Of a stretch of DNA of 64,000 nucleotides, positions 3,317 to 39,639 are shown piece by piece. This stretch comes from Tieghemostelium lacteum. Taxonomy: Eukaryota; Evosea; Eumycetozoa; Dictyosteliales; Raperosteliaceae. The stretch is from the NCBI GenBank assembly GCA_001606155.1, contig LODT01000039.1, positions 372,001 through 436,000 on the forward strand. Reading direction: 5' to 3'. The number at the start of each line of letters is the position of its first letter. Position 1 is the stretch's first letter. Under the pieces are notes generated by a model. That model worked only from the letters and a program-made list of their open reading frames with translations. It ran no database searches and was not told the DNA's origin. A program made the position numbers and the translations under genes.

Positions 3317-3714
3317 TTATTTATCAAACCCTGAGTCAATTGATAATTGATTTGAAATATGAAGTTGGTGCAATATATTTTTAAACTTTTTAATTTCTAA
3401 ATCCTTTTTAATAATCTCTTTTTCATAATTATCTTTCATATTATATAGAGAAATCTCTAGTATACCAATTTTATCATTAAGTGATCTTAGTTTTTCAAAA
3501 AAATCCTTATCCTTCTCTATTAACTCATTTTCTATTTTCATTTTTTCTTCCCTTATATTTTTAAAATGATCACATAACTTGTTTGATTTATTTTTTAGAT
3601 TTAGATATTTTACCTTTAATTTATTATACTCATCCTAGATAGAACAAGGTTAATACAATTCTATTTAATAAATTTGTTTCAAGTCTTATATACCTCTGTA
3701 TCATTGTCACCCAT
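3317..3714 (-). CDS. small coiled-coil protein, unknown
   Basis: Two exons: 3714-3694 and 3634-3317, with a 59-nt intron (GTATAT...CTAG) in phase 0. The product is 112 residues (MGDNDTEDEYNKLK...). Nearly the whole chain is a Lys/Glu/Leu/Ile-rich heptad pattern, so a continuous coiled coil is expected. There is no signal peptide, membrane segment or recognisable domain. It is divergent from the gene at 3878, with about 160 bases between starts. Function is unknown; a small adaptor or structural coiled coil is the most that can be said. Confidence 0.65.
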
Positions 3715-17787: not shown

Positions 17788-17884
17788 TTTATACTAATAT
17801 ATTTAATTACACTCTGTTGCCCTTCACACTTGAATGAATCAATTTGAAAATATTTTTTTTTTTTTATTTCATCATTAATTACAA
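17788..17884. promoter_or_regulatory. short bidirectional promoter
   Basis: Only 97 bp separate the start codons of gankyrin (minus) and the Thg1-like gene (plus). The gap contains a T-run at about 17851-17862. Both promoters must lie here or within the coding ends. Confidence 0.6.
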
Positions 17885-18754
17885 ATGATTATGTTAAGTC
17901 GACTCACAAAGAATTTAAATTATTCTATTCGATATTATTCATCAGTTACAAAATTTAAAAATATTGAAGAGTCATTTGATTTTAAATTACCACCTTATCA
18001 ACCATATATCATTAGATTTGATGGAAACTCATTTAAAAAATTAACAAAAGATTTGGAATTAACCAAACCCTATGATATGAATTTTCACAATGTAATTATT
18101 ACTTTAGTACTAGGAAGTCGTGTTGAATAATGAATTCTAAATTCTGAAATTTGGTTGAAACCTTAGGCAATGAAAGATGCATCACTTTCACTTTGTAATT
18201 ATATAAAAGATAGTAAATTGGTATATTCCTTTTCTGATGAAATCAATGTACTTGTGTATTCAAAGTACCCTGAGGACCCTTTTCTTTCGAATAGAATACA
18301 AAAACTGATTAGTTTAACTTCATCTATAGTGTCTACTAATTTTTCAGTGTCTCTGTCATCGTCATTACCTAACAAACCAGTGGTAAAAGCATACTTTGAT
18401 GCCAGAGTATTCCCAATACAATTTAATGATATCAGTGAATATCTATATCAGAGACAATCAAGATGTTATAGCAATTGTCTCAACACTATCATTCAACATG
18501 AATCTGTAAATACTGAGTTTCATCCACAAGAAAACTCCACAAAAAAATATCTAGAGCAAGCCAAAGATTACATAAAAGATCAATTAAATATCGATTTGCA
18601 ATCAGATCGATGTAAATACCCACACTATTTTCAAAAAGGTTTTATTTTACAAAGAAAAACCACAAATTTAAAAAATAGTGAGTGGGCGATAAATACTGAA
18701 CCATTACCTTGGTTAGATGGAACATACATTCAAAATTTTATAAAAAATGAATAA
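17885..18754 (+). CDS. mitochondrial Thg1-like protein (3'-5' RNA polymerase)
   Basis: Two exons: 17885-18091 and 18167-18754, with a 75-nt intron (GTAATT...TTAG). The product is 264 residues. The N-terminus (MIMLSRLTKNLNYSIRYYSS) is rich in Arg/Ser/Tyr without acids and looks like a mitochondrial presequence. Thg1 catalytic motifs follow: RFDGNSFKKLT (first metal-binding Asp) and FSDEINVLVY (SDE pair), then YFDARVFPI. The HINNLYN signature of true tRNA-His guanylyltransferases is replaced by a divergent CYSNCLN stretch, so it is one of the Thg1-like proteins (TLPs). Dictyostelium TLPs add the G-1 of mitochondrial tRNA-His or repair mitochondrial tRNA 5' ends; which of the two applies here cannot be told. 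Confidence 0.82.
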
Positions 18755-18869: not shown

Positions 18870-21800
18870 ATGATCCCGAATACAAAATTATTTATTATCT
18901 TTCTACTTGAATGTATATTGGTTTTACAATTAGCTCAATTAAATCCAATATGTAAATCACCACAAGGTGATAATGCAGATTATTGGTATATTAGAAAATT
19001 ACCATTTTCAGATAGTTACCTATATTTTGATAACGTAAATCAAAATGTAAATAATTTCAATTATAATACATATATATTTAGGAATTGTAAATCTAATTAA
19101 AATGTTTTACTATTAGGTTTTATACGAAAGTGATATTAAATTATCAACTAGTGCACTTGGTAGAACTATTGATCAAATTAAAAGTAATAGTTATTACCTT
19201 TTATATAATGGTTTACCATTAAGTAGAGAATCTCTAACTGAAAATCCTGAATCATTTGGAACATCTGATCAAAGTACTAAATTATACAGTAAAGGTATTT
19301 TATCATTTGGAAATACTGCTCAGACTTTAGTAAACACATTAGAGAATACCTCTGGTTTCTTAATTAAACATACTTTACCAGGATTCCCAACAGTAGATTT
19401 CAAAACTCCATCTGAAAATCCTACTGCTTGGTACCCTAAAGAATACCACGTTGAGAATAGCTATACAACAAATGGTGATATTAAATACAGTCATGGTAAC
19501 TCTTTCTTTTGTTTTTCATTTCAATCTGTTAGTGATGTCATTGAATTGGTTCAATTCTCAAATCCATTCATTTACAAAACTAATTTTTATCCAACATCAT
19601 TAACAAGTTTGCAACCAATATTCCAAGGGCCAACCCAGAGTTCTGTCAATAGAAAAACTATTTCACTTCCAAATAGTAACCTTTCTTTAAAGTTATTTAG
19701 TGGAAATTTAAATATTTTCACTGAAATTACATCTGATGCATTCCCATTTTTAATTGTAAATATTAAGATAATACCAATCTCTTAGATATTATATCAAATT
19801 TATTAACATATCAAATTCCAAATTTATTCTTTTTGTTTAAAAAAATAGGAAAACAATGTAGTAACTGCAAAAATAGTTAAAGAGGTACAACTACCAATAG
19901 AATTCTCTTCTCAATTTGATATTAAAGGAGATCAAAGTAGATTTAGAGTTGGTACTGATTTCAGTCAGATATCATTCAATGCAAACAATAGCGAAGTATG
20001 CATAATTGAAACTCACACACTTTCAATTTATCACAGTGTATTATGTTTTAACAGTGATTTATTAAGTGCATTCTTACAGAGTATGACAATGAAATACCAA
20101 ATTGGTACCTATAATGAAACCGATTTCAACACTCCTCAGGTATTTAAAGGAACATTCGTCATGGAAGCTCCCCAATCCGATAATTATCAATTCCCAGATA
20201 CTTTATTAACTAATACCAAAATTCAATTGGTTTCTAAATGGTCTAATACTGTTTTACAAGGTATGAAAGAAACCATTTCATTTCAAACTGACTCCAATGG
20301 TCAGTTCCAATTGAAAAAGAATTATCAACCTGAATTGAAATGTCTTTTAGAGGATCCTGTAAACCATATAAAAATCATCAACCAACAAGGTGAAGTGATA
20401 TCAGTATCCATGGTGAACCAAGTAACTTATTATCAGACTCCAAGTGACCCATTAGTTAGAGTCTATAAAACTCTTCAGTTACTTGTACAATCACTTCCAA
20501 CTCTATTCCAAGGTACTAATATAAACTTGGCAACTCCACTTGATATTACAATTCAAATTAATGACACTACATCTAATCTCTACTTAAATAACTTAATGAA
20601 CTCACCAATGAATAGAGATAATATTGATTCTGTTTTTAGAACATTTTCATATAATCTATTGACTAAAGTAAACCCAGGATTGCAAACCTCATTACAAGGG
20701 TTAGATATCAACTTATCTAATTCACTTGATAGAGAATACCAAGATGATAAGCACCAACCATTTTTATTGGGTCTGATTAACTTTATTGCAATTCAAATGA
20801 AGTCTATGGTATATAAAGATTTAACATTGCAATTCAAACAACGTTTCTTTAATGTTGATTTGGAAAACTTCCAAGTACCTTCTACCAACGGTGTTAATAT
20901 GGAAGGTTGGATTACAGCTCTTCTAATTGACTTGGTTGATCAAGAAAATGATTTTAACAATCATGAACTATATCAACTAGACAACAACCAAGATGAAACT
21001 ATTCCATTATCATTCATTATCAATGCTACACAATCCATAACCACAACTGATAATATCATTTCATTTATGGATAGATTACTCTCATTGTCTCTCACTTCAA
21101 CCCAAATATCATTAGCTAATGATATTATGACCTATAACAATATTTTTAAATGTCCACAATTATGTTATAATACCTCCCCTGAACCAGTAAGTACAAACTA
21201 CTGCACTCTATAAAAAAAACATTAGATATTAATACTAATTTTTTAAATTAAAGTACACAGGTGGCGATAAATTAGTTAAATACCTATATGACAATTTAAT
21301 TTGCCCAGCAGATGTTAATAGAGTTGGTTCAACTGTCCTACAAGAAGTATTCAACAATTTTATTCATTCAGAAGTTGAAGATTTCAACAGTGTTACAACT
21401 TTGATGTCTCTTGCTATTAGAACTTTCAAAGAATGTGAGCCAATTGATGAAGAAAAGGGTTGTCTATATAATATCCCAGAAGGTAAAATGGTTCCATTAG
21501 ATTCCATGGTAATGATCACTTCAGAGATTAATGAGTTGATTGACCAAGCTGATTACTACATTGAATATGGTCAAGATTTAGTTGGTTACTTAATTGAAAA
21601 CTTAAAGTCCTATCAACAATATAACAATTATGTATTATATACATATAAAGGTAAAATATGCTCATTTGTACCAAATGCTGTCGTGTCACAATTTAGTCAA
21701 GATAAATATATCAACAGCTGTAATTGTGGTCCTATTGTATCTCATATAAATCCAACTAGTGGTCCAACAGATGATAGTCCTAAAATTACTGTAACTGGTA

Positions 21801-24604
21801 GAAAATTGAATTTATCAACTAAAGTATTTATTGGTGATAAAGAATGTGTAGTAAGCAATTATTATAAATCTGGTTTAGATGATATAATTATTTGCAATGG
21901 TGAATCTGATACTGGAGTTCAAGTTGTAACATTCCAAGATCCAGCATCTCCATTACCAGTTGAAGAAAGAGAAGTTGATATCATCTACTCATTCTATAAG
22001 CCAGTAATTGAACAGGTAATCAACTATCAAAACCTTATTCCAAATAGAGGGCTGGTAACTATCAAAGGTCAAAATCTACCAACTGATAATACTGCAGAAG
22101 TTATTGTATTATTGAGTGATTTCCCACAAGAAATTCAAGAAATCTCCACTCAAATTAATCCAGTAACCCAACAAAGCGAGAGTATAATTACATTTACTCC
22201 GCTTGGTGTAGGTACAGGTAATTTCCTAGAACTGATTATTGATGGACAAAGTACAGGTTTTATTTCAACTTGGAGTATTGATTTTAGAGAACCTGTAATA
22301 ACTGGTATCACCCCAACATCTGGTAACCCATGGAGTTTAGTAACTATCACAGGTCAACTCTATAACTCTGATTTGATGCTTTCCGATTTGTATTCATTTA
22401 ATTTGGTAAATGAAGAATATGATGATGAAGATGAATTCTCAATTGAAATTGTTGAATGGTTAGATGAGAATACAGTCGTTGGTATGGCACCTGAAAGATA
22501 TGGTCAAAATTTATATGTTAAAATGATTTTTGCCAACCAAATTGTATTTGCCAAAACAGTTAGATTCAGTTATCTCCAACCAGTTATTGATCACATGGTA
22601 CACGACAAATTCATGACTAATCAAAGTAATTACTTTTGGTTAGTAGGTAGAAATCTGTATCCAGATTTCTATCAAATTGTAGTCACTTTCCTTGATGATA
22701 CTTATGTCTCTGATTGTGTCGAAGAACCTGAACTCTATCCACAAAAAACACTGTTCTATGATGAAGAAGGTGAGTTATACACTGGAGGTATACCAACTTC
22801 TCAATTACCTAATGCCTATGACCCATATTTGGATTTGGATCCAATCTATAGAACAACTGTTGAATTCCAATCCTACATATGTCTATTTGGGTCTGGTATT
22901 GGTACAGGATTCGAAATGAACCTTTATATAAATGATGAACCTCTCTATTCTGATTTTTCAGTTGGGTTTGGTCAACCTACTGTATTGGAACTCACAGCTT
23001 CAAATGAAACTTTGTTCTCAACTAAAGGTGGTTCAATGGTAACCGTATATGGTGAAAACTTTGTTCCAAATGAGAATTTGAACCCTGGTGATGAATCTTT
23101 TGATGGTGGTAGAGATTATTCTAATGTCTTCATTAATGGTTTTGAATCACCAAATATTACATGGACCTCATCCATTGAAATTCAATTTGAAATTCCACCA
23201 GGTATTGGATACAATCTATCTGTTCAAATAATGGTTGGTCTACAATTCAACTATGATCATAACGTTACATTTTCATATGATAAACCAAAACTGCAAGAAA
23301 ACTCAAGTTATACAAGTCCAACTGTTGGTGATAAATGGATAACTATAACTGGTGATAACTTTGTTCCACAAGAATTAGCAACTAACCAAACTCTTTTGGA
23401 CAACTTAGGTTTTGAAAATTCAATTCGTATTGGAAATCACAGTTGTTTGGAGGTTAAATGGTTAGATAACCATAATGCATCTTGTAAAGTTCCACCAGGT
23501 ACTGGAAAAGAACTTTCAATCACTGTCACTGTTGGTAACCAAACCTCTGAACCCAACCAATTCTTCTCTTATGACCAACCAAATATCGTTTCTATTCTAC
23601 CTAATAGAGGAAGAAAATCCAACAACACTGTGATCACTATTAAAGGTGTCAACTTTGGATCCAATGCCAACGAATCAATTGAATTGGTATCTGTTTTAAT
23701 TGGTGATATTCAATGCACCAATGTTCAATATCTAACTTTACCAGTAGAACAAGGAGAAGAAGAGGAAAACTATGAGTGGATTCAATGCACAGTTCCATCT
23801 ATAACAACTGATCCTACACCAGAAGAAAATATTGTAAAATTGGTTGTAGTAAAAGTTAACTCTCAAATCTCACAAAACAATGATACAACATTCGAGTTCT
23901 ATGGTCCACCAAAACTTATATCAGTTTCACCAACTAGTGGTACAATTGATGGTGGTGTTGATTTAACAATTACTGGTAATAATTTCATAGAACACCAAGA
24001 TAATGATACCCTTAAAATCCAATTTAACGGTAAAACATTAGAATCAACTTCAATTAAAGAGATTAAAATGAACAAAATCATTTTTACAACTGTTAAAGGT
24101 GGTGGTAAAGATATTGATCTACATGTAATACTCAATCAACAGGAATCCAATCATAACACTCAGTATCATTATAATCAAGCATTGTTAGAGTCATTGTCAC
24201 CTTCTACCTCTGATAAAGATGTTCCAATGTTGGTCACATTTATTGGTAATGATTTAGGTTTGTCAGGTGACTTTGATGACCCTGTCATTCATTTTGGTGA
24301 TATTTTAACTGAAAATCAATGTACAACAGTAGTTGTGACATCCAGTCACTCATTGACATGTACAAGTCCAACATCAACTACAGTTGGTATTAAATCAGTT
24401 ACATTGACTTTCTATTCTCAAGAATCTAGTAATTCACTACAATTTGAATATACAGATGGTCAACAAGATACTACTTCCACTACTACAACACCACTTACAA
24501 CCACTCCAGTAATTGGTGGTCCAGTATCAAGTAACAGTACTTCAAACTCAACCACAACAACTACAACCACTTCATCTACAACTGGTGGTTTTGCACCTCA
24601 ATAA
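18870..24604 (+). CDS. secreted DNase II-like / TIG-repeat fusion protein
   Basis: Four exons: 18870-19034, 19117-19755, 19849-21186 and 21254-24604. All junctions are phase 0 and give 1830 residues. Residues 1-24 look like a signal peptide. Residues about 28-340 are a DNase II domain (YWYIRKLP, SALGRTID, YLLYNGLP, SKGILSFG, GFLIKHTLPGFP, YSHGNSFFCFSF, FDIKGDQSRFRVG). Both nuclease HxK motifs are altered: the first is YSK (112-114) and DHSKW is DQSRF (296-300), so it is probably inactive. Residues about 345-714 form an unrecognised domain. From about 870 on come multiple IPT/TIG repeats as in Tgr adhesion proteins, ending in a Thr/Ser-rich tail without membrane segment. A role in cell recognition or matrix is inferred. 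Confidence 0.75.
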
Positions 24605-24741: not shown

Positions 24742-25471
24742 TTACTTTCCAGCCAATCTGTCAAATCTGTGGATTTTGGCTTTGCAACTGGAACATGAGT
24801 GTTCAACATCTTTCAAAGAGTCAATTGCCAATGGAATTAAACAACAACCTAACCAACAACCGCAAATTAAGAGTAAAGCACAAATTAACCAACACATTGA
24901 ACCAACAACGTATTCAGTTTTGGTTGGACCTCTAGCATTGCAATGTCCACATCTGTTTATTAAAAAATAAAGAGTCAGTACAAAATGTCTAAGCCGAGTT
25001 TTTAAAAAAAAAAAAAATTTTCCAAGATCCACTTGACACGTATTTATAAATAGAAATCACTCCTTTACACTCCGCATTTTAACGGTGTTGATGATAAATA
25101 AAAGGAAGTTATTTACAAAAAATCATCTATTATAAACACAAAGTGATTGATGAAGACACATATATATATAAATTGAATACCTACGTAATATCAACTGGGA
25201 CTTCTAAGAATTTTGGAGCAGATTGAACAACAACTACATTTTGAGCCATGTATTGTGGTTGTGGGGCACCTTGTGGTGGTGGGTAACCTTGTTGTGGTGG
25301 GTAACCTTGTTGTGGTGGATAACCTTGTTGTGGTGGATATCCTTGTTGTGGTGGGTAACCTTGTGGTGGTGGTTGAGCATATCCTTGTTGTGGTGGATAT
25401 TGTTGATCTTGTGGTGGGTAACCTTGTTGTGGTGGTTGTTGTGAGTCAGTTGGTTTGTCTAAGTTTGTCAT
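24742..25471 (-). CDS. LITAF-domain membrane protein
   Basis: Two exons: 25471-25185 and 24952-24742, with a 232-nt intron (GTAGGT...AACAG). The product is 165 residues. The N-terminal half is made of YPPQQG-type repeats. The C-terminal half is a complete LITAF domain: CGHC (its Cys codon begins at the junction), [28 protein letters not shown] hydrophobic hairpin, [10 protein letters not shown] and CSSC. The four cysteines of the two CxxC knuckles bind zinc and the hydrophobic part inserts into the cytosolic leaflet of late endosomal or lysosomal membranes. LITAF/SIMPLE proteins act in endosomal sorting. Read separately, either exon would be a misleading ORF. Confidence 0.9.
25255..25452 (-). 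repeat. in-gene tandem repeats coding for YPPQQG-type units
   Basis: About ten copies of a 15-bp or longer unit (core GGTTACCCACCACAACAA on the minus strand) in the first exon of the LITAF gene. The opposite strand is therefore open by chance and rich in Val/Gly codons. Confidence 0.85.
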
Positions 25472-26220
25472 TATATTTATATATATTTAATATTTATTGA
25501 AAATATTAATTGCTAAGTGTAAGTGATACAAAAAAAATTATAAAAAGAAAAAAAAAAACAAACAAAGTTTTGATGTCTGAAAATATCTTAAGATTTGAGT
25601 TGTAGAAAAAAAATTTTAAAAAATCAAATTATTTTATTTTTTTAGTCGTTGTATAATATTGTGTAACCACCACAATGGTAAAATTCCTTGTTATTTAGGG
25701 GGTTGGATAGGGCATAAGGCATAAATTACAACTAAGCTTGATTCATCTAGTTGTAAGACCAAAAATTTACGTTTGTTTTGTAATTTTTTTTAAAAATAAT
25801 TTGTAACAACATTGTGTCCCTCCAATCTAAATATATCATTAATCTTTAATTAAAATTTAAATAAACAACAATTTTCTTTATTGACTATAGTTTTTTTGTT
25901 TTATACAGATAATATTAAATGAATTTCTTTCAATAAAATGTTGTTATTATTATATATATTATAATGTTTTTGGAACACATTTCCATATCTATTCATTGTG
26001 TTTTGATATATATTTTTACTTGTGTTTTTGGATTGTTTTTTTTTTGAAAAGAAGAGTTTGAGATGGGAGAAGAAGGAAGAGGTTATTTTCTAAATGTATA
26101 AGTTTTTGAAAATTTAAAAATATAAGTGTGTAGTTGTTGATAATTATTATAGGTATGGTGATTTGAAAATTGAAAAATGATATAAAAAAATAAACTATTA
26201 TATTTTTGTATTGAATGTGA
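25472..26220. other. gene-free stretch
   Basis: AT-rich DNA between the start of the LITAF gene and the end of Cdk5, both minus strand. It contains oligo-A and oligo-T tracts and no convincing ORF; a 72-codon Phe/Ile-rich minus-strand frame at 26016-26234 overlaps the Cdk5 end and looks like chance. Confidence 0.55.
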
Positions 26221-27590: not shown

Positions 27591-30161
27591 TTAAAAGTAT
27601 GAAAAGGATTGATTGGGTTCTGATGATTGATTTCCAACAGTTAGTGTGATTGAAAGATTATTTCCTGTTCCTGGTGGAACTTGACATAGTGCTTGATTAT
27701 CACTTACCCATTGAATAGATAAACAATTTTGAGAACCAATTCGAATTGAATTTTCAAAACCTAAACTGTTCAAGAGAGTTTCGTTTTGTGATAATTCTTG
27801 AGGAACAAAGTTTTTACCACTTATTGTTATCCAATCATAACCTGAACTTGAGGTTGTATAACTTGAGTGGTGTAATATTGGTTTATCATAGGAGAATTTT
27901 ACTTCATTATCACTGTTATTTTGAAGACCAACCATTACTCGGACTGATAAATTTGAACCAATTCCTGGTGGAACTTCAATTTGAATCTCACTTGACGATT
28001 TCCATTTAATATTGGAAACTTCAATACCATTGATGAATACATTTGATATTTCTCTACCTCCATCTATAGATTCTTTATAAGGTTCATTAACATATTCACC
28101 CCTACCAACATATAAATTTCCTTTAAAAAATTCATTTGGTACAAAGTTTTCACCATTTAAAGTTATTGTGAATCCACCTTTGGTATCCAATAACTCTTCT
28201 TTTGGTTTCATTATTTCATTTACTAAAGGTTTACTGTATGATATTGTTGCAATTTCTTCAGAGTACCCTTTAAGATGTATCTTATTGCTTCCAATTCCAA
28301 TACCCATCCTACATAAAACAATTTCATTTTTGTTGTATTCTGATCCAGGTGTTTTTCTCGGTATTGGGGTATCAGTAAATCGTATTACATTATGGTTGAA
28401 AAAGTATTGGCTGCCATATGTATCAAATAAATCTACTCGGTCTATGTCATAACACTGAAGATGAATTGATGAATTAAAATGAATAAACTTTGATTTCAGT
28501 TGATGTCCATGCATATAAAAATAGGTAGATTCATTCGTCTTTGCTCTTGTACTATTATATTCTACCAAATCAACTCTAGACAATGGATTTCTAAATGAGA
28601 TATTTCTATTCTCCATTTCTATACCATCCAAGAACAATTTAATATCATATACCATACTTCTATTGGTGTCACCTACTTTTACAATAATAGTAGTGTCATT
28701 ATGTACATGTGTGGAGATTGGGCTATCCAATGTATACGGATATTCAACATATACAGGGTCATATCCTATTAAAATATAATACTTATCCCTAAACAGTTTA
28801 TGTGTGTTAAAATTTAAACCAGAGATAGTAAACACACTTTCTATCTCTCTTGTGTCAATTAAATTTGGGTAAATGTCAGTGATGGTAGGGTCAAGGAATT
28901 CAACATTCCAAGACATTATAGACCCACTTTGTATACCATCAATATCCAATTCAAGGTAGTTATGCTTTCCAACCCCATTTGGTGTAAATGTTATATAGGT
29001 TTCATTTTGTTGTGTTTCTTGATTGATTTCAGTGTAGATATCTTGAATTTTCTGATTGGTACCTTTTAGTTTTACAATAATGTTGGATGATATGTTGAGT
29101 TGGAATACGGGACTGATAATAGTGACCAGTCCTTTATTAGGTACAAGATCTTTATGATTTACCAATTCTCTTATCCATGGTTTATACAATACAAACTTAA
29201 AATTATTATAAAACAGAGTTTCTCTTAACAGTGTTGGATCAGTGAATTTAAACTCTTTTTCATGGTTATCAATATCACTTGAAACATTAAATTGACAAAT
29301 GATGGTGTCTTCATATCGAGATTTTGAATGTTCTTTTACCAAACATGGTTCATTATCCAATGACACATAGGTATTGAAATTCAAATTATATCCAGTAATT
29401 GTAATGGCTACAGTTGTATTTTGATTTGAAATTGGAGAGCCTAATGGTGAGATATTATTTACTAATGGACCCATTTTACATCTTCCAAAAAAGTCTTCTC
29501 GTTGGAAGATTTCTTCAGTTGCATTCGAAATAACTGAACATATCTGACGTTTATGTATTATCACTGCTGAATGTGTACCTGAAATTGGATTATAAATTAA
29601 ATATCCTTCTAGACCATAACCAAAGTTTTGGTAAGGTGAAAGTCCAGACATTCTTATTGAACATATATCTCTCCAAATTTCATGTGTTACCGATACTATA
29701 TCTTTAAAAGGATATTGACTACCATCTGGAAACTTTATAAAACAGTTAACATCGCCATAAGAATTGGTATATATATCTATATCATTTCTAAATGATTTTA
29801 AAGCCTCTTTCATTACATAGGCAGTTTCATTAAAACCGTTTTCATAGATTGAAGAATATAGATATTCTCTACTAATATCTTCAATCAATTGATCTGGACA
29901 TTGTCTTGTATGTTCACCAAATATTATAGAGCTACGATACTGTATTCAATTAAATAAGTAATTATAGTTAAAAATCATATCAAAAGTGTTCATACTATTA
30001 AACCTTACAGATTCAATTGGGGAAAATGAAAAATATTCATCAAAATATATACTTTTATAATCATTTTTATCACAAGATGGGTGGTAAAATAAAAATGAGT
30101 ATATAACTTGAGAACACAATAAAAGATAAACAATACTTAATAAATAAATGCTTTTAATCAT
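27591..30161 (-). CDS. secreted TIG-repeat protein (Tgr-like), without membrane anchor
   Basis: Two exons: 30161-30009 and 29939-27591, with a 69-nt intron (GTAAGG...ACAG) in phase 0. The product is 833 residues with a signal peptide (MIKSIYLLSIVYLLLCSQVIYS). Exon 2 begins YRSSII and corresponds to the last exon of the DNase II/TIG gene. It has the same cysteine-bearing N-domain (CPDQLIED, KRQICSVISNATEE, FGRCKMGPLVNNISP) and then TIG repeats from about residue 207, including VPPGTGNNLSITLTVGNQ. It stops at FSYF, where the paralogue reads FSYDQP and continues for about 350 residues. No GPI signal or membrane segment is visible. It may be secreted or a shortened copy. Tgr-class proteins act in adhesion and allorecognition. 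Confidence 0.78.
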
Positions 30162-37035: not shown

Positions 37036-39639
37036 TTGAAAATGAACTATAGTATATTAGTATTTATTCTTTACACACTACTCTTGTATTCAGATCAATG
37101 TGTATTTAGCTTTAAATCTGAAAATACATTAAATAGTTTAACACTACAATTGTTATCATTACAATACAATTGTTCTGATATCAAGTATATTCAAAGAGAA
37201 TCTTCAAAAATTATTTATAAAAGAGAGAATATCACATGTAATCCAGATAGTGTTAGTTTACTATTGGAAGATAGTGCCATTTCAGAGGACTATACGATTT
37301 ATTTTAATAATAATAATACATTACCACTGAGAGACTATGTCTTTTTAAAACCAATTCAATACAACCTAAACGACACAACAAAAATTGGTACTAATGGAGG
37401 TAAATTTCAAATATCTTTTCAACACTTTTCGCTTGCTGATTCTCTATTCAGTGTTTCAATTAGATCAATGGGTAAAACTTTAGTTTACAATTCAAACTCT
37501 TCAAAACTAATTCTCACAAAGGATCGAATGGAAATTAGTATTCCTGAAGGTGTTGGAACATTTCAATTAAAATTCTATTTTGGTAGAATTACAAATTGTA
37601 AAGAATGTCAATCTCAATATTTAATCGAAGTAAATCAATATTATAATAGTAAGTTTAAATATTAAAATTTAATGGGTTAATTAGTATTAATACTTTTCTA
37701 TACAGCACCAATTATTAATTCAATCGAGAATGATGAAAAATATTTATATATTAATGGGGAGGGATTTGGATCCAATAGTAAATATATGGATTTATTTATT
37801 GATGGTATCAGATTGAACAATTTGTACCTCGTTTCATTTGTCCATAATCAAATCAAGTTATATCATAATATCGATAAATCAAAGAAGATCACTTTGGAAT
37901 TAAAAATTGCTGGACAATCACCACAATTGTCTATCATCGAATACCAATTTACCCCAATTCTGCAGTCTATAACGCAATCATTCAGAGGAGAATACATTAC
38001 ACTCACTGGATATTTCTTGGACGTTAACCCATTTCTTTTGATACAAATTGGTAACTATTTATGTATCAACCCAAGAAACCCAATTAATGGTAATTTTCAA
38101 TTTCTACAATGTCTTTTAGTTCAAGGTCAAGGTGAAAACCTGCAAGTAAATATAACTGTCGATGGAAAACCAAGTAAATCTAAAATATATTTTACATTTA
38201 GCCCTCTAATTACCAAAATTGAGTCACCAAACAATGATGGTTATCTGACAATATCTGGAGAGTCATTTGGTAATATTAACCAATCAACAATTGTATTCAA
38301 TGATATTGAATACTCCGATTTAGTTTCTACTTCTGATAAGAATCTGGTAATCTTCAGAATACCACCTAGCCCATTAAATGGTGATATACAAATTCAATTC
38401 AATGGTAGAAAATCCAATTACTTCAATTATGAGTTTGTTCCTATAATACAATCTATTTCTGGTTCATCTACTCAAGGTGGTTTAATAACAATTACTGGAA
38501 AATACCTAAGAATTTTAGATAGTGTCAGTAATAACCTATTCACAATGGTTTATGATCCTAATGACCCAAGCCTCCAATGCATAAATCTGTATGAAGATCC
38601 ATCATTAATTGGAAATCAACTGTATTGCCAATTGACTTCTGGAACTGGAAACCATTCAATTCAAATAGCAATATCAAAGTCCACTTCTAAACCATTCCAA
38701 TACTCTTACAATCCACCATTAATCACAGAACAATCACAATTTAATAGAGTTGGAATCATAGAAGGTATGAACTTTGGTAATAATATTGATCGATTGAAAC
38801 TCTATTATAATGGTCAACTATATAGTAATAATATTATTAAGAGTATAAGTCATAATATTTTGTCCTTTGAAATTCCGGAGTTGGCAAGATCTGGTGCACT
38901 TTATGTTGTTATTGATGGTCAGAAATCCAATCAAATTAATTTCACAGTGAACCCATTCATTGATGGTTACAGCTCAGTACCAACCAATGGAGGAATTTTA
39001 ACTATATTTGGAGGATATTTTGTGCCTGATTTCTATAAGCAAATGTCCATTATGGTTGGAAATGTTAGTTGTCTACAGGTTAAAATAACTCATCCAAGTT
39101 CAATAGAATGTCTAATGCCAAGTGGATCTGGTAAAAACTATACTTTTACATTCCTCAATCAAACCGATAACAATGCAACTCTCATTCAAAATTTTAATAA
39201 TATTAAATTCTCCTATGAAAGACCAAGAGTAGTTGCCATTAGTTCAGTTGGATTAGAAGGCGGATATGTTACTATTGACGGTACTTCCTTCAACACTCCA
39301 ATTTCCATTCAAGTTGGTGATAGACAATGTCAAAATCCATTAGTTATTAACTATTCTCAAGCTATTTGCTACCTCTCTCCCTATGAAAAAGTTCCAAATG
39401 ATTTCATTGATGTTATTGTAAATGTAAATGAGGTTATAGGTATATCTAAACTATTCAAATATATAGAAGACAAAGACCAAGCTGTAGATATTGGTATACA
39501 AGTTGGGTCCAACAGTAATATTGTAGCTGCAATTGTTATACCTGTTGTAATTGTGAGTGGAATAATTTTGATATTCCTAGTATTTATTATTCAAAGATAC
39601 CGTAGATTAAAAAAATTAATTGAAGAATTTAAAAAATAA
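37036..39639 (+). CDS. TIG-repeat transmembrane protein (Tgr-like)
   Basis: Two exons: 37036-37648 and 37706-39639, with a 57-nt intron (GTAAGT...ACAG). The product is 848 residues. A signal peptide occupies about residues 1-25. A unique Cys-poor N-domain runs to about residue 204. Exon 2 then encodes IPT/TIG repeats (TPIINSIENDEKYLYINGEGFGS, FVPIIQSISGSSTQGGLITITGKYL, and so on), with pairs of cysteines such as VSCLQVKI and RQCQNP. A single membrane span (about 810-833) and a short basic cytoplasmic tail (RYRRLKKLIEEFKK) end it. This is the layout of TgrB1/TgrC1-type adhesion and allorecognition receptors. G-box-like elements precede it. Confidence 0.85.

What the first reader, a model, noticed from the sequence alone, without database searches (positions are those of the whole stretch)
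18870..24604. Pseudo-DNase II domain fused to a TIG-repeat (Tgr-like) secreted protein
Seen: four phase-0 exons join a signal peptide and a recognisable DNase II domain to an unknown domain and then TIG repeats. There is no start codon with a signal peptide between the parts. Known: DNase II needs two HxK motifs. Here they read YSK (residues 112-114) and QSR (297-299). Inference: a dead nuclease domain may have been kept as a DNA- or ligand-binding module on an adhesion or kin-recognition molecule. I know of no described protein with this layout.
Basis: partly seen in the sequence, partly recalled or inferred. Interest (0 to 1): 0.82.

Follow-up and report, generated by a model that had tools for sequence, protein, structure and literature searches.

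The report
Inactivated DNase II head on TIG protein
A social amoeba carries a gene for a secreted adhesion-type protein whose front end descends from a DNA-cutting enzyme but lacks the residues needed to cut; a second gene in the same genome has the same layout with those residues intact.

Summary
The window is from Tieghemostelium lacteum. The gene reads as stated: four phase-0 exons (18870-24604) give a signal peptide, a DNase II domain, an unassigned region, seven TIG matches and a Thr-rich tail. A public record (P0001, 1834 aa, exon 1 four codons longer) already lists both Pfam domains. DNase II homology is strong for the N-terminal half (Pfam 72.7 bits, cut-off 23); the C-terminal half alone does not stand out from shuffles, so QSR as the second-motif equivalent is unproven. 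But residues 1-370 contain no H-x-K or H-x-R, so the catalytic pattern is absent. Fourteen loci of the genome match DNase II; the other 13, read by eye, keep both histidines. One (C33:735.4-743.1 kb) is a second DNase II + TIG gene, with HAK and HNK. Next door (30161-27591, minus strand) lies a paralogue of exon 4 alone, where a predicted signal-peptide exon replaces exons 1-3 at the same phase-0 acceptor: the DNase II part looks like a swappable 5' module. No transmembrane segment was found, so it is not Tgr-like in anchoring. Best reading: a secreted matrix/adhesion protein with a non-catalytic DNase II-derived binding head. Expression, folding and ligand were not shown.

The parts
18870..19034 (+). 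Exon 1: N-terminal hydrophobic segment (signal peptide) and start of DNase II domain; public model ends it at 19046
19117..19755 (+). Exon 2: most of the N-terminal half of DNase II
19285..19293 (+). YSK (residues 112-114), at the place of the first HxK motif
19849..21186 (+). Exon 3: degenerate C-terminal part of DNase II (to about residue 347) and most of the unassigned middle region
19933..19941 (+). QSR (residues 297-299), proposed but not statistically secured equivalent of the second HxK motif
21254..24604 (+). Exon 4: cysteine-containing stretch (about 160 aa, no Pfam over cut-off), TIG repeats, Thr-rich tail, stop
21740..24450 (+). TIG/IPT repeat region (7 Pfam stretches; limits approximate, by eye)
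27591..29939 (-). Exon B of neighbouring paralogue: homologous to exon 4 (39% over query residues 26-778), TIG repeats, no DNase II
30009..30161 (-). Exon A of neighbouring paralogue: signal-peptide-like exon spliced, phase 0, to exon B where exons 1-3 sit in the fusion gene (my prediction, no transcript)

Best explanation
One secreted, soluble (not membrane-anchored) matrix or adhesion-type protein in which a DNase II-derived domain, no longer able to cut DNA by the known mechanism, serves as a binding head on a stalk of TIG beta-sandwiches. The head was joined to (or lost from) a secreted TIG gene through a phase-0 intron: the paralogue next door carries the same TIG exon behind a bare signal-peptide-like exon. 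Shown by sequence: gene layout, DNase II ancestry of the N-terminal half, absence of HxK, the exon-4 paralogue without DNase II, a second fusion gene with HxK kept. Inferred: that the gene is expressed as one transcript, that the head folds and is inactive, that it binds something (DNA or another polyanion is the first guess, since the lysine of the first motif is kept), and that the protein works outside the cell.
For: Exons, phases, N-terminal hydrophobic segment and no other. DNase_II 72.7 bits and TIG 165.3 bits; 64.9 bits against at most 8.3 in 1000 shuffles. No HxK/HxR in residues 1-370, while 13 of 13 other DNase II loci of the genome keep both histidines, read by eye. Second fusion gene: DNase_II 91.0 bits, then TIG 52.9 bits in the next frame, joined by a 59-nt intron that I chose among 16 junctions that keep the frame open. 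Neighbour with exon 4 only: E 5.1e-120, exon A 153 nt, phase 0; dN 0.60 and dS 1.32 over 742 codons with an open frame, which suggests constraint on the shared part. Two HxK-type motifs are described as the DNase II catalytic centre (PMC4148230, passages; PMC9208542, passages).
Against: No transcript; no orthologue found in another species (low sensitivity); no dN/dS for the DNase II part; both structure models too poor to use (mean pLDDT 32.1 and 40.9). The C-terminal half of the domain is so degenerate that a foldable DNase II head is itself unproven. A sequence search of solved structures with the DNase II part gave no DNase II. Ligand binding has no direct evidence. Similarity of the middle regions of the two fusion genes is weak (z 3.0, 5 of 300 shuffles reach it).
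Confidence: 0.5

Rival explanations
1. Decaying domain: the DNase II part is a leftover of an active DNase II-TIG fusion (such as the C33:735 kb gene) that lost its active site and is drifting, with function only in the TIG part.
For: HxK gone and C-terminal half no longer recognisable alone; the neighbour does without the DNase II part; long end branch in the tree (1.56).
Against: The frame is open through exons 1-3 (718 codons in the public model) with a good Pfam score for the first half, and a large middle region is kept with it.
Confidence: 0.25
2. Still an enzyme with altered chemistry (for example Tyr112 in place of the first His), or active only together with another DNase II-like protein.
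For: K114 kept in YSK; R299 if the second motif is placed rightly.
Against: The HxK pair is described as the catalytic centre; none is present in residues 1-370.
Confidence: 0.08
3. Two genes merged by prediction: a DNase II-like gene (exons 1-3, stop ending 21213) and a separate TIG gene (exon 4).
For: The neighbouring paralogue suggests that the TIG exon can be spliced to a short signal-peptide exon; no transcript was seen.
Against: Only 40 nt lie between the stop at 21213 and exon 4, with no ATG; exon 4 has no signal-like segment; intron 3 has a GTAAGT donor and keeps phase; the public model joins them; the C33:735 kb gene has the same order.
Confidence: 0.06

Closest known systems
DNase II (PF03265; PLD-type acid nuclease)
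   Same: N-terminal half matches over profile positions 2-186 of 326; signal peptide, as reported for most of the proteins compared in PMC4148230 (passages)
   Different: No HxK in residues 1-370; C-terminal half not recognisable alone; followed by about 1480 further residues
C33:735.4-743.1 kb gene of the same genome (L047), DNase II + middle + TIG
   Same: Same order of parts, N-terminal hydrophobic segment, DNase II 91.0 bits, TIG 52.9 bits; DNase II parts related (z 10.6, 0 of 300 shuffles)
   Different: HxK kept at both places (HAK, HNK); longer (2538 aa in my predicted join); middle only weakly similar
Neighbouring TIG gene 30161-27591 (-)
   Same: Homologous to exon 4 over query residues 26-778, same acceptor and phase
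   Different: No DNase II hit, no middle region; 153-nt signal-peptide-like exon; ends about 290 residues before the Thr-rich tail of exon 4
Trichinella spiralis DNase II-like expansion
   Same: Precedent for DNase II relatives without the motif: of 125 predicted genes only one was said to contain it (PMC4148230, abstract and passages)
   Different: No TIG fusion is mentioned in the passages seen
Tgr proteins (TgrB1, TgrC1)
   Same: Extracellular TIG repeats, dictyostelid
   Different: Tgr proteins are transmembrane (PMC12324515, passages; PMC4931340, table passage); this one is not, and has a DNase II head

Membership tests
DNase II | Sequence match to the DNase II profile over its cut-off | tested here: met
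   72.7 bits, cut-off 23, residues 28-233; N-terminal half only
DNase II | Two HxK motifs forming the catalytic centre | tested here: not met
   No HxK or HxR in residues 1-370; first-motif place reads YSK
DNase II | C-terminal half (DHSKW ... C-GDxNR ... CF) | tested here: inconclusive
   3.8 bits alone, below several of 2000 shuffles; the tail and start of the middle match L047 with z 6.1, 0 of 300 shuffles
DNase II | Acid DNase activity | not testable with these tools
   needs protein
IPT/TIG-repeat secreted proteins | Signal peptide and several TIG domains | tested here: met
   TIG 165.3 bits, 7 stretches; N-terminal hydrophobic segment (hydropathy only; no signal-peptide predictor was run)
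Tgr family | Transmembrane segment with cytoplasmic tail | tested here: not met
   Only the N-terminal segment is strongly hydrophobic; 19-mers starting after residue 1750 reach at most 0.52 (hydropathy only)
Tgr family | Closest sequence kinship to tgr genes | not tested
   no tgr sequences were compared

The most novel reading that the evidence does not exclude
Dictyostelids turned DNase II into a non-cutting, secreted DNA-holding module on TIG adhesion proteins, for instance to bind or hold together DNA nets such as those that sentinel cells cast in D. discoideum (PMC4773522, passages), with the HxK-intact fusion gene of the same genome as the net-cutting counterpart.
Probability: 0.1. Interest if true: 0.75.

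Novelty: new variant of a known kind. Interest (0 to 1): 0.45.

Why it matters
Motif-less DNase II relatives and TIG adhesion proteins are both known, but no paper in the library searched holds 'DNase II' together with 'TIG domain' (0 papers). If the head binds DNA, it links extracellular DNA to the adhesion proteins of social amoebae, and a pull-down could test it. The window also shows what looks like an exon-level swap: two neighbouring genes share the TIG exon but differ in the 5' half, a concrete case of how such mosaic adhesion proteins may arise.

Tried and rejected
Structure prediction of exon 3 alone (mean pLDDT 32.1) and of exon 2 with three bacterial DNase II rows (40.9) was too poor to use, so no fold search was run. 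Protein-database searches found only the protein itself for the whole query, ten other TIG proteins for residues 700-1780 (best: a Hanusia phi protein, 358 bits), none with PF03265 in its domain list (only the 7993 candidates sharing most words scored), and nothing for the DNase II part alone among 821 candidates. They need shared exact words, so they do not show that the fusion is absent from other dictyostelids; no other dictyostelid genome could be searched. NCBIfam gave one chance-level match; solved structures gave no DNase II.

I first read the second motif of the C33:735 kb gene as RYK (from the alignment) and would have concluded that both TIG fusions are dead; the pattern search and the wider alignment showed HNKIAY, in register with the HEKLAI / HDKIAF motif of the family, so I dropped that idea. 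A tree of 17 DNase II rows (exons hand-joined roughly; L055 and L056 without their middle exons; L058 misframed, corrected) does not place the two fusions together, and does not reject it either (AU p 0.167); in it the window row is nearest, by path, to a bacterial row (28% identity over 241 columns). Whether the fusion arose once is open. Own-genome protein searches with single queries score few candidates; one search missed even the neighbouring paralogue, so their silence counts for little. Assembly error as the cause of the missing motifs was considered and set aside by reasoning only.
Full report
What the window is. The protein database returned one hit at 100% identity for the spliced product: P0001, 1834 aa, Tieghemostelium lacteum, 'IPT/TIG domain-containing protein', with Pfam PF01833 and PF03265 precomputed. 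The window is contig C33:372001-436000 of a 23.3-Mb, 43-contig assembly.

Gene structure. Exons 18870-19034, 19117-19755, 19849-21186 and 21254-24604 are all phase 0, with GT-AG introns, and give 1830 residues plus stop. P0001 differs only by four added residues (VNQN) at the exon 1/2 junction, that is, it uses the donor at 19047. Both donors read GTAAAT and both keep the frame; I cannot choose between them. Exon 3 runs unbroken from the end of the DNase II part far into the unassigned region (454-codon stop-to-stop frame), so these two parts cannot be separate genes. Between the exon-3 stop (ending at 21213) and exon 4 there are 40 nt without ATG. Exon 4 holds internal Met codons but no signal-like segment, so as a secreted protein it needs exon 3 or some unseen upstream exon.

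Domains. Pfam: DNase_II over residues 28-233 (72.7 bits, cut-off 23, profile 2-186 of 326); TIG in exon 4 (165.3 bits, 7 stretches); in residues 348-873 only DUF4931_C, at 16.8 bits under its cut-off of 28.6. A DNase II profile built from seven other sequences (the standard T. lacteum enzyme, three further T. lacteum loci, three bacterial ones) scores the protein 64.9 bits; the best of 1000 shuffles of residues 1-420 scores 8.3. The C-terminal part alone (residues 263-420 of P0001) has a domain score of 3.8 bits, and several of 2000 shuffles score higher. The tail of the domain with the start of the middle does match the second fusion gene (z 6.1, 0 of 300 shuffles). So DNase II ancestry is sure for the first half, plausible for the second.

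Catalytic motifs. DNase II is described as having two HxK-type motifs that form its centre (PMC4148230 and PMC9208542, passages seen). The first place reads YSK, aligned with GHTK/GHSK/GHCK of bacterial enzymes and AHSK of the T. lacteum enzyme. The second was proposed as QSR; one alignment puts DQSRF under DHSKW, the other shifts it. Independent of alignment, residues 1-370 contain no HxK or HxR.

Family in the genome. PF03265 gives 16 matches at 14 loci. Read by eye from translated frames, first/second motif: L001 HSK/HSK, L048 HEK/HSK, L049 HHK/HEK, L050 HHK/HEK, L051 HHK/HDK, L052 HAK/HEK, L053 HQR/HEK, L054 HSK/HEK, L055 HHK/HEK, L056 HHK/HEK, L057 HSK/HEK, L058 HHK/HDK, L047 HAK/HNK, window YSK/QSR. 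So 13 of 13 other loci keep both histidines and 12 of 13 keep both full HxK; the window gene is the exception. The loci were found with a profile that favours conserved members, and several motifs lie at exon ends, so the contrast may be overstated. L001 is an ordinary full-length DNase II (322.3 bits, profile 1-326).

Second fusion. L047 (C33:734000-743999) has a 750-codon frame with an N-terminal hydrophobic segment and DNase_II (91.0 bits, two stretches), followed by an 1822-codon frame with TIG (52.9 bits, two stretches). Of 16 junctions that keep the frame open I chose the 59-nt intron GTATGT...TTATAG (local 3572-3630); no transcript was seen. For the other loci the genome-wide TIG search scored only 150 of 314 candidates, so I scanned 27 downstream frames of L048 to L058 with Pfam (L053's main frame). 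Two hold TIG: L049:7693-9660, which follows an LRR frame that has its own signal-type start, and L058:1736-2746 (minus), with a 542-codon frame between it and the DNase II part. I take both for separate genes, without proof. One search also listed a weak TIG match (28.0 bits) at C7:71.5 kb beyond L050, with a kinase frame between; one search reports DUF4062, not TIG, for the held part of that frame. Hence 2 of 14 DNase II loci are TIG fusions by this reading, a lower bound. The middle regions of the two fusions are only weakly alike (z 3.0, 5 of 300 shuffles as high).

Neighbouring paralogue. On the minus strand at 30161-27591 lies a gene whose main exon is homologous to exon 4 (E 5.1e-120, 39% over query residues 26-778; the match runs a few bases past the stop of this frame, counted there as one TAA). 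It starts at an acceptor in the same place and phase after a 69-nt intron, and its predicted first exon (153 nt) encodes MIKSIYLLSIVYLLLC..., a signal-peptide-like start; the product is 833 aa. It has TIG (98.7 bits, two stretches) and no DNase II hit. Across 742 aligned codons dN is 0.60 and dS 1.32 (near saturation); residues about 1359-1549 are much closer (66% identity, dS 0.67), which may reflect gene conversion. Among the 37 candidates scored, no third place matched exon 4 over its length. The same TIG exon thus occurs with two different 5' halves. Which state is older is not known.

Mechanism. The likely picture is a soluble secreted protein (one strongly hydrophobic segment, at the N-terminus; 25 N-glycosylation sequons; Thr-rich tail without a hydrophobic end) with a TIG stalk and a DNase II-derived head that cannot cut by the known mechanism. 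That it binds DNA is a guess from ancestry. D. discoideum sentinel cells cast DNA nets (PMC4773522, passages seen). Whether T. lacteum does so was not looked up.

Known or new. T. lacteum was reported to have 76 IPT/TIG proteins (PMC4931340, table passage). Trichinella gives a precedent for many motif-less DNase II relatives (PMC4148230). No paper in the searched library holds both 'DNase II' and 'TIG domain'; of the papers listed for DNase II with Dictyostelium (15 of 21, 12 of 16) I saw only titles and abstract starts, apart from passages of PMC4148230 and PMC12324515, and none of these describes such a fusion. The protein record itself is public with both domains, so the layout is recorded, not described as far as I could see. 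I call it a new variant of a known kind.

Noticed in passing
27591-30161 (-): Inverted neighbouring paralogue of exon 4 with a signal-peptide-like exon instead of DNase II; a stretch matching residues about 1359-1549 is far more alike (66%) than the rest (26-35%), as after gene conversion.
   Followed up: partly
L049, L050, L051, L052, L054, L055, L056, L057, L058 (with L053): A divergent expanded group of DNase II-like genes in T. lacteum with AHHK / HEKLAIS / GDGNRHYTQ-type motifs, mostly intron-rich, HxK kept in nearly all; frames directly downstream of several show no Pfam family.
   Followed up: partly
37681-39636 (+): A third TIG gene frame in the window (652 codons, 108.4 bits, 3 stretches).
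   Followed up: no
25181-25486 (-) and 24742-25056 (-): [14 protein letters not shown] frame followed by a short cysteine-rich, hydrophobic stretch, resembling a LITAF-type protein (recalled, not searched), just downstream of the gene.
   Followed up: no
17879-18754 (+): Two frames just upstream resemble a tRNA-His guanylyltransferase (PYIIRFDGNSFKKLT; recalled, not searched), possibly split by an intron.
   Followed up: no
L053:1279-3501: A 741-aa DNase II-like protein in one frame with a first motif HQR instead of HxK and a long extension after the DNase II part in which Pfam finds nothing.
   Followed up: no
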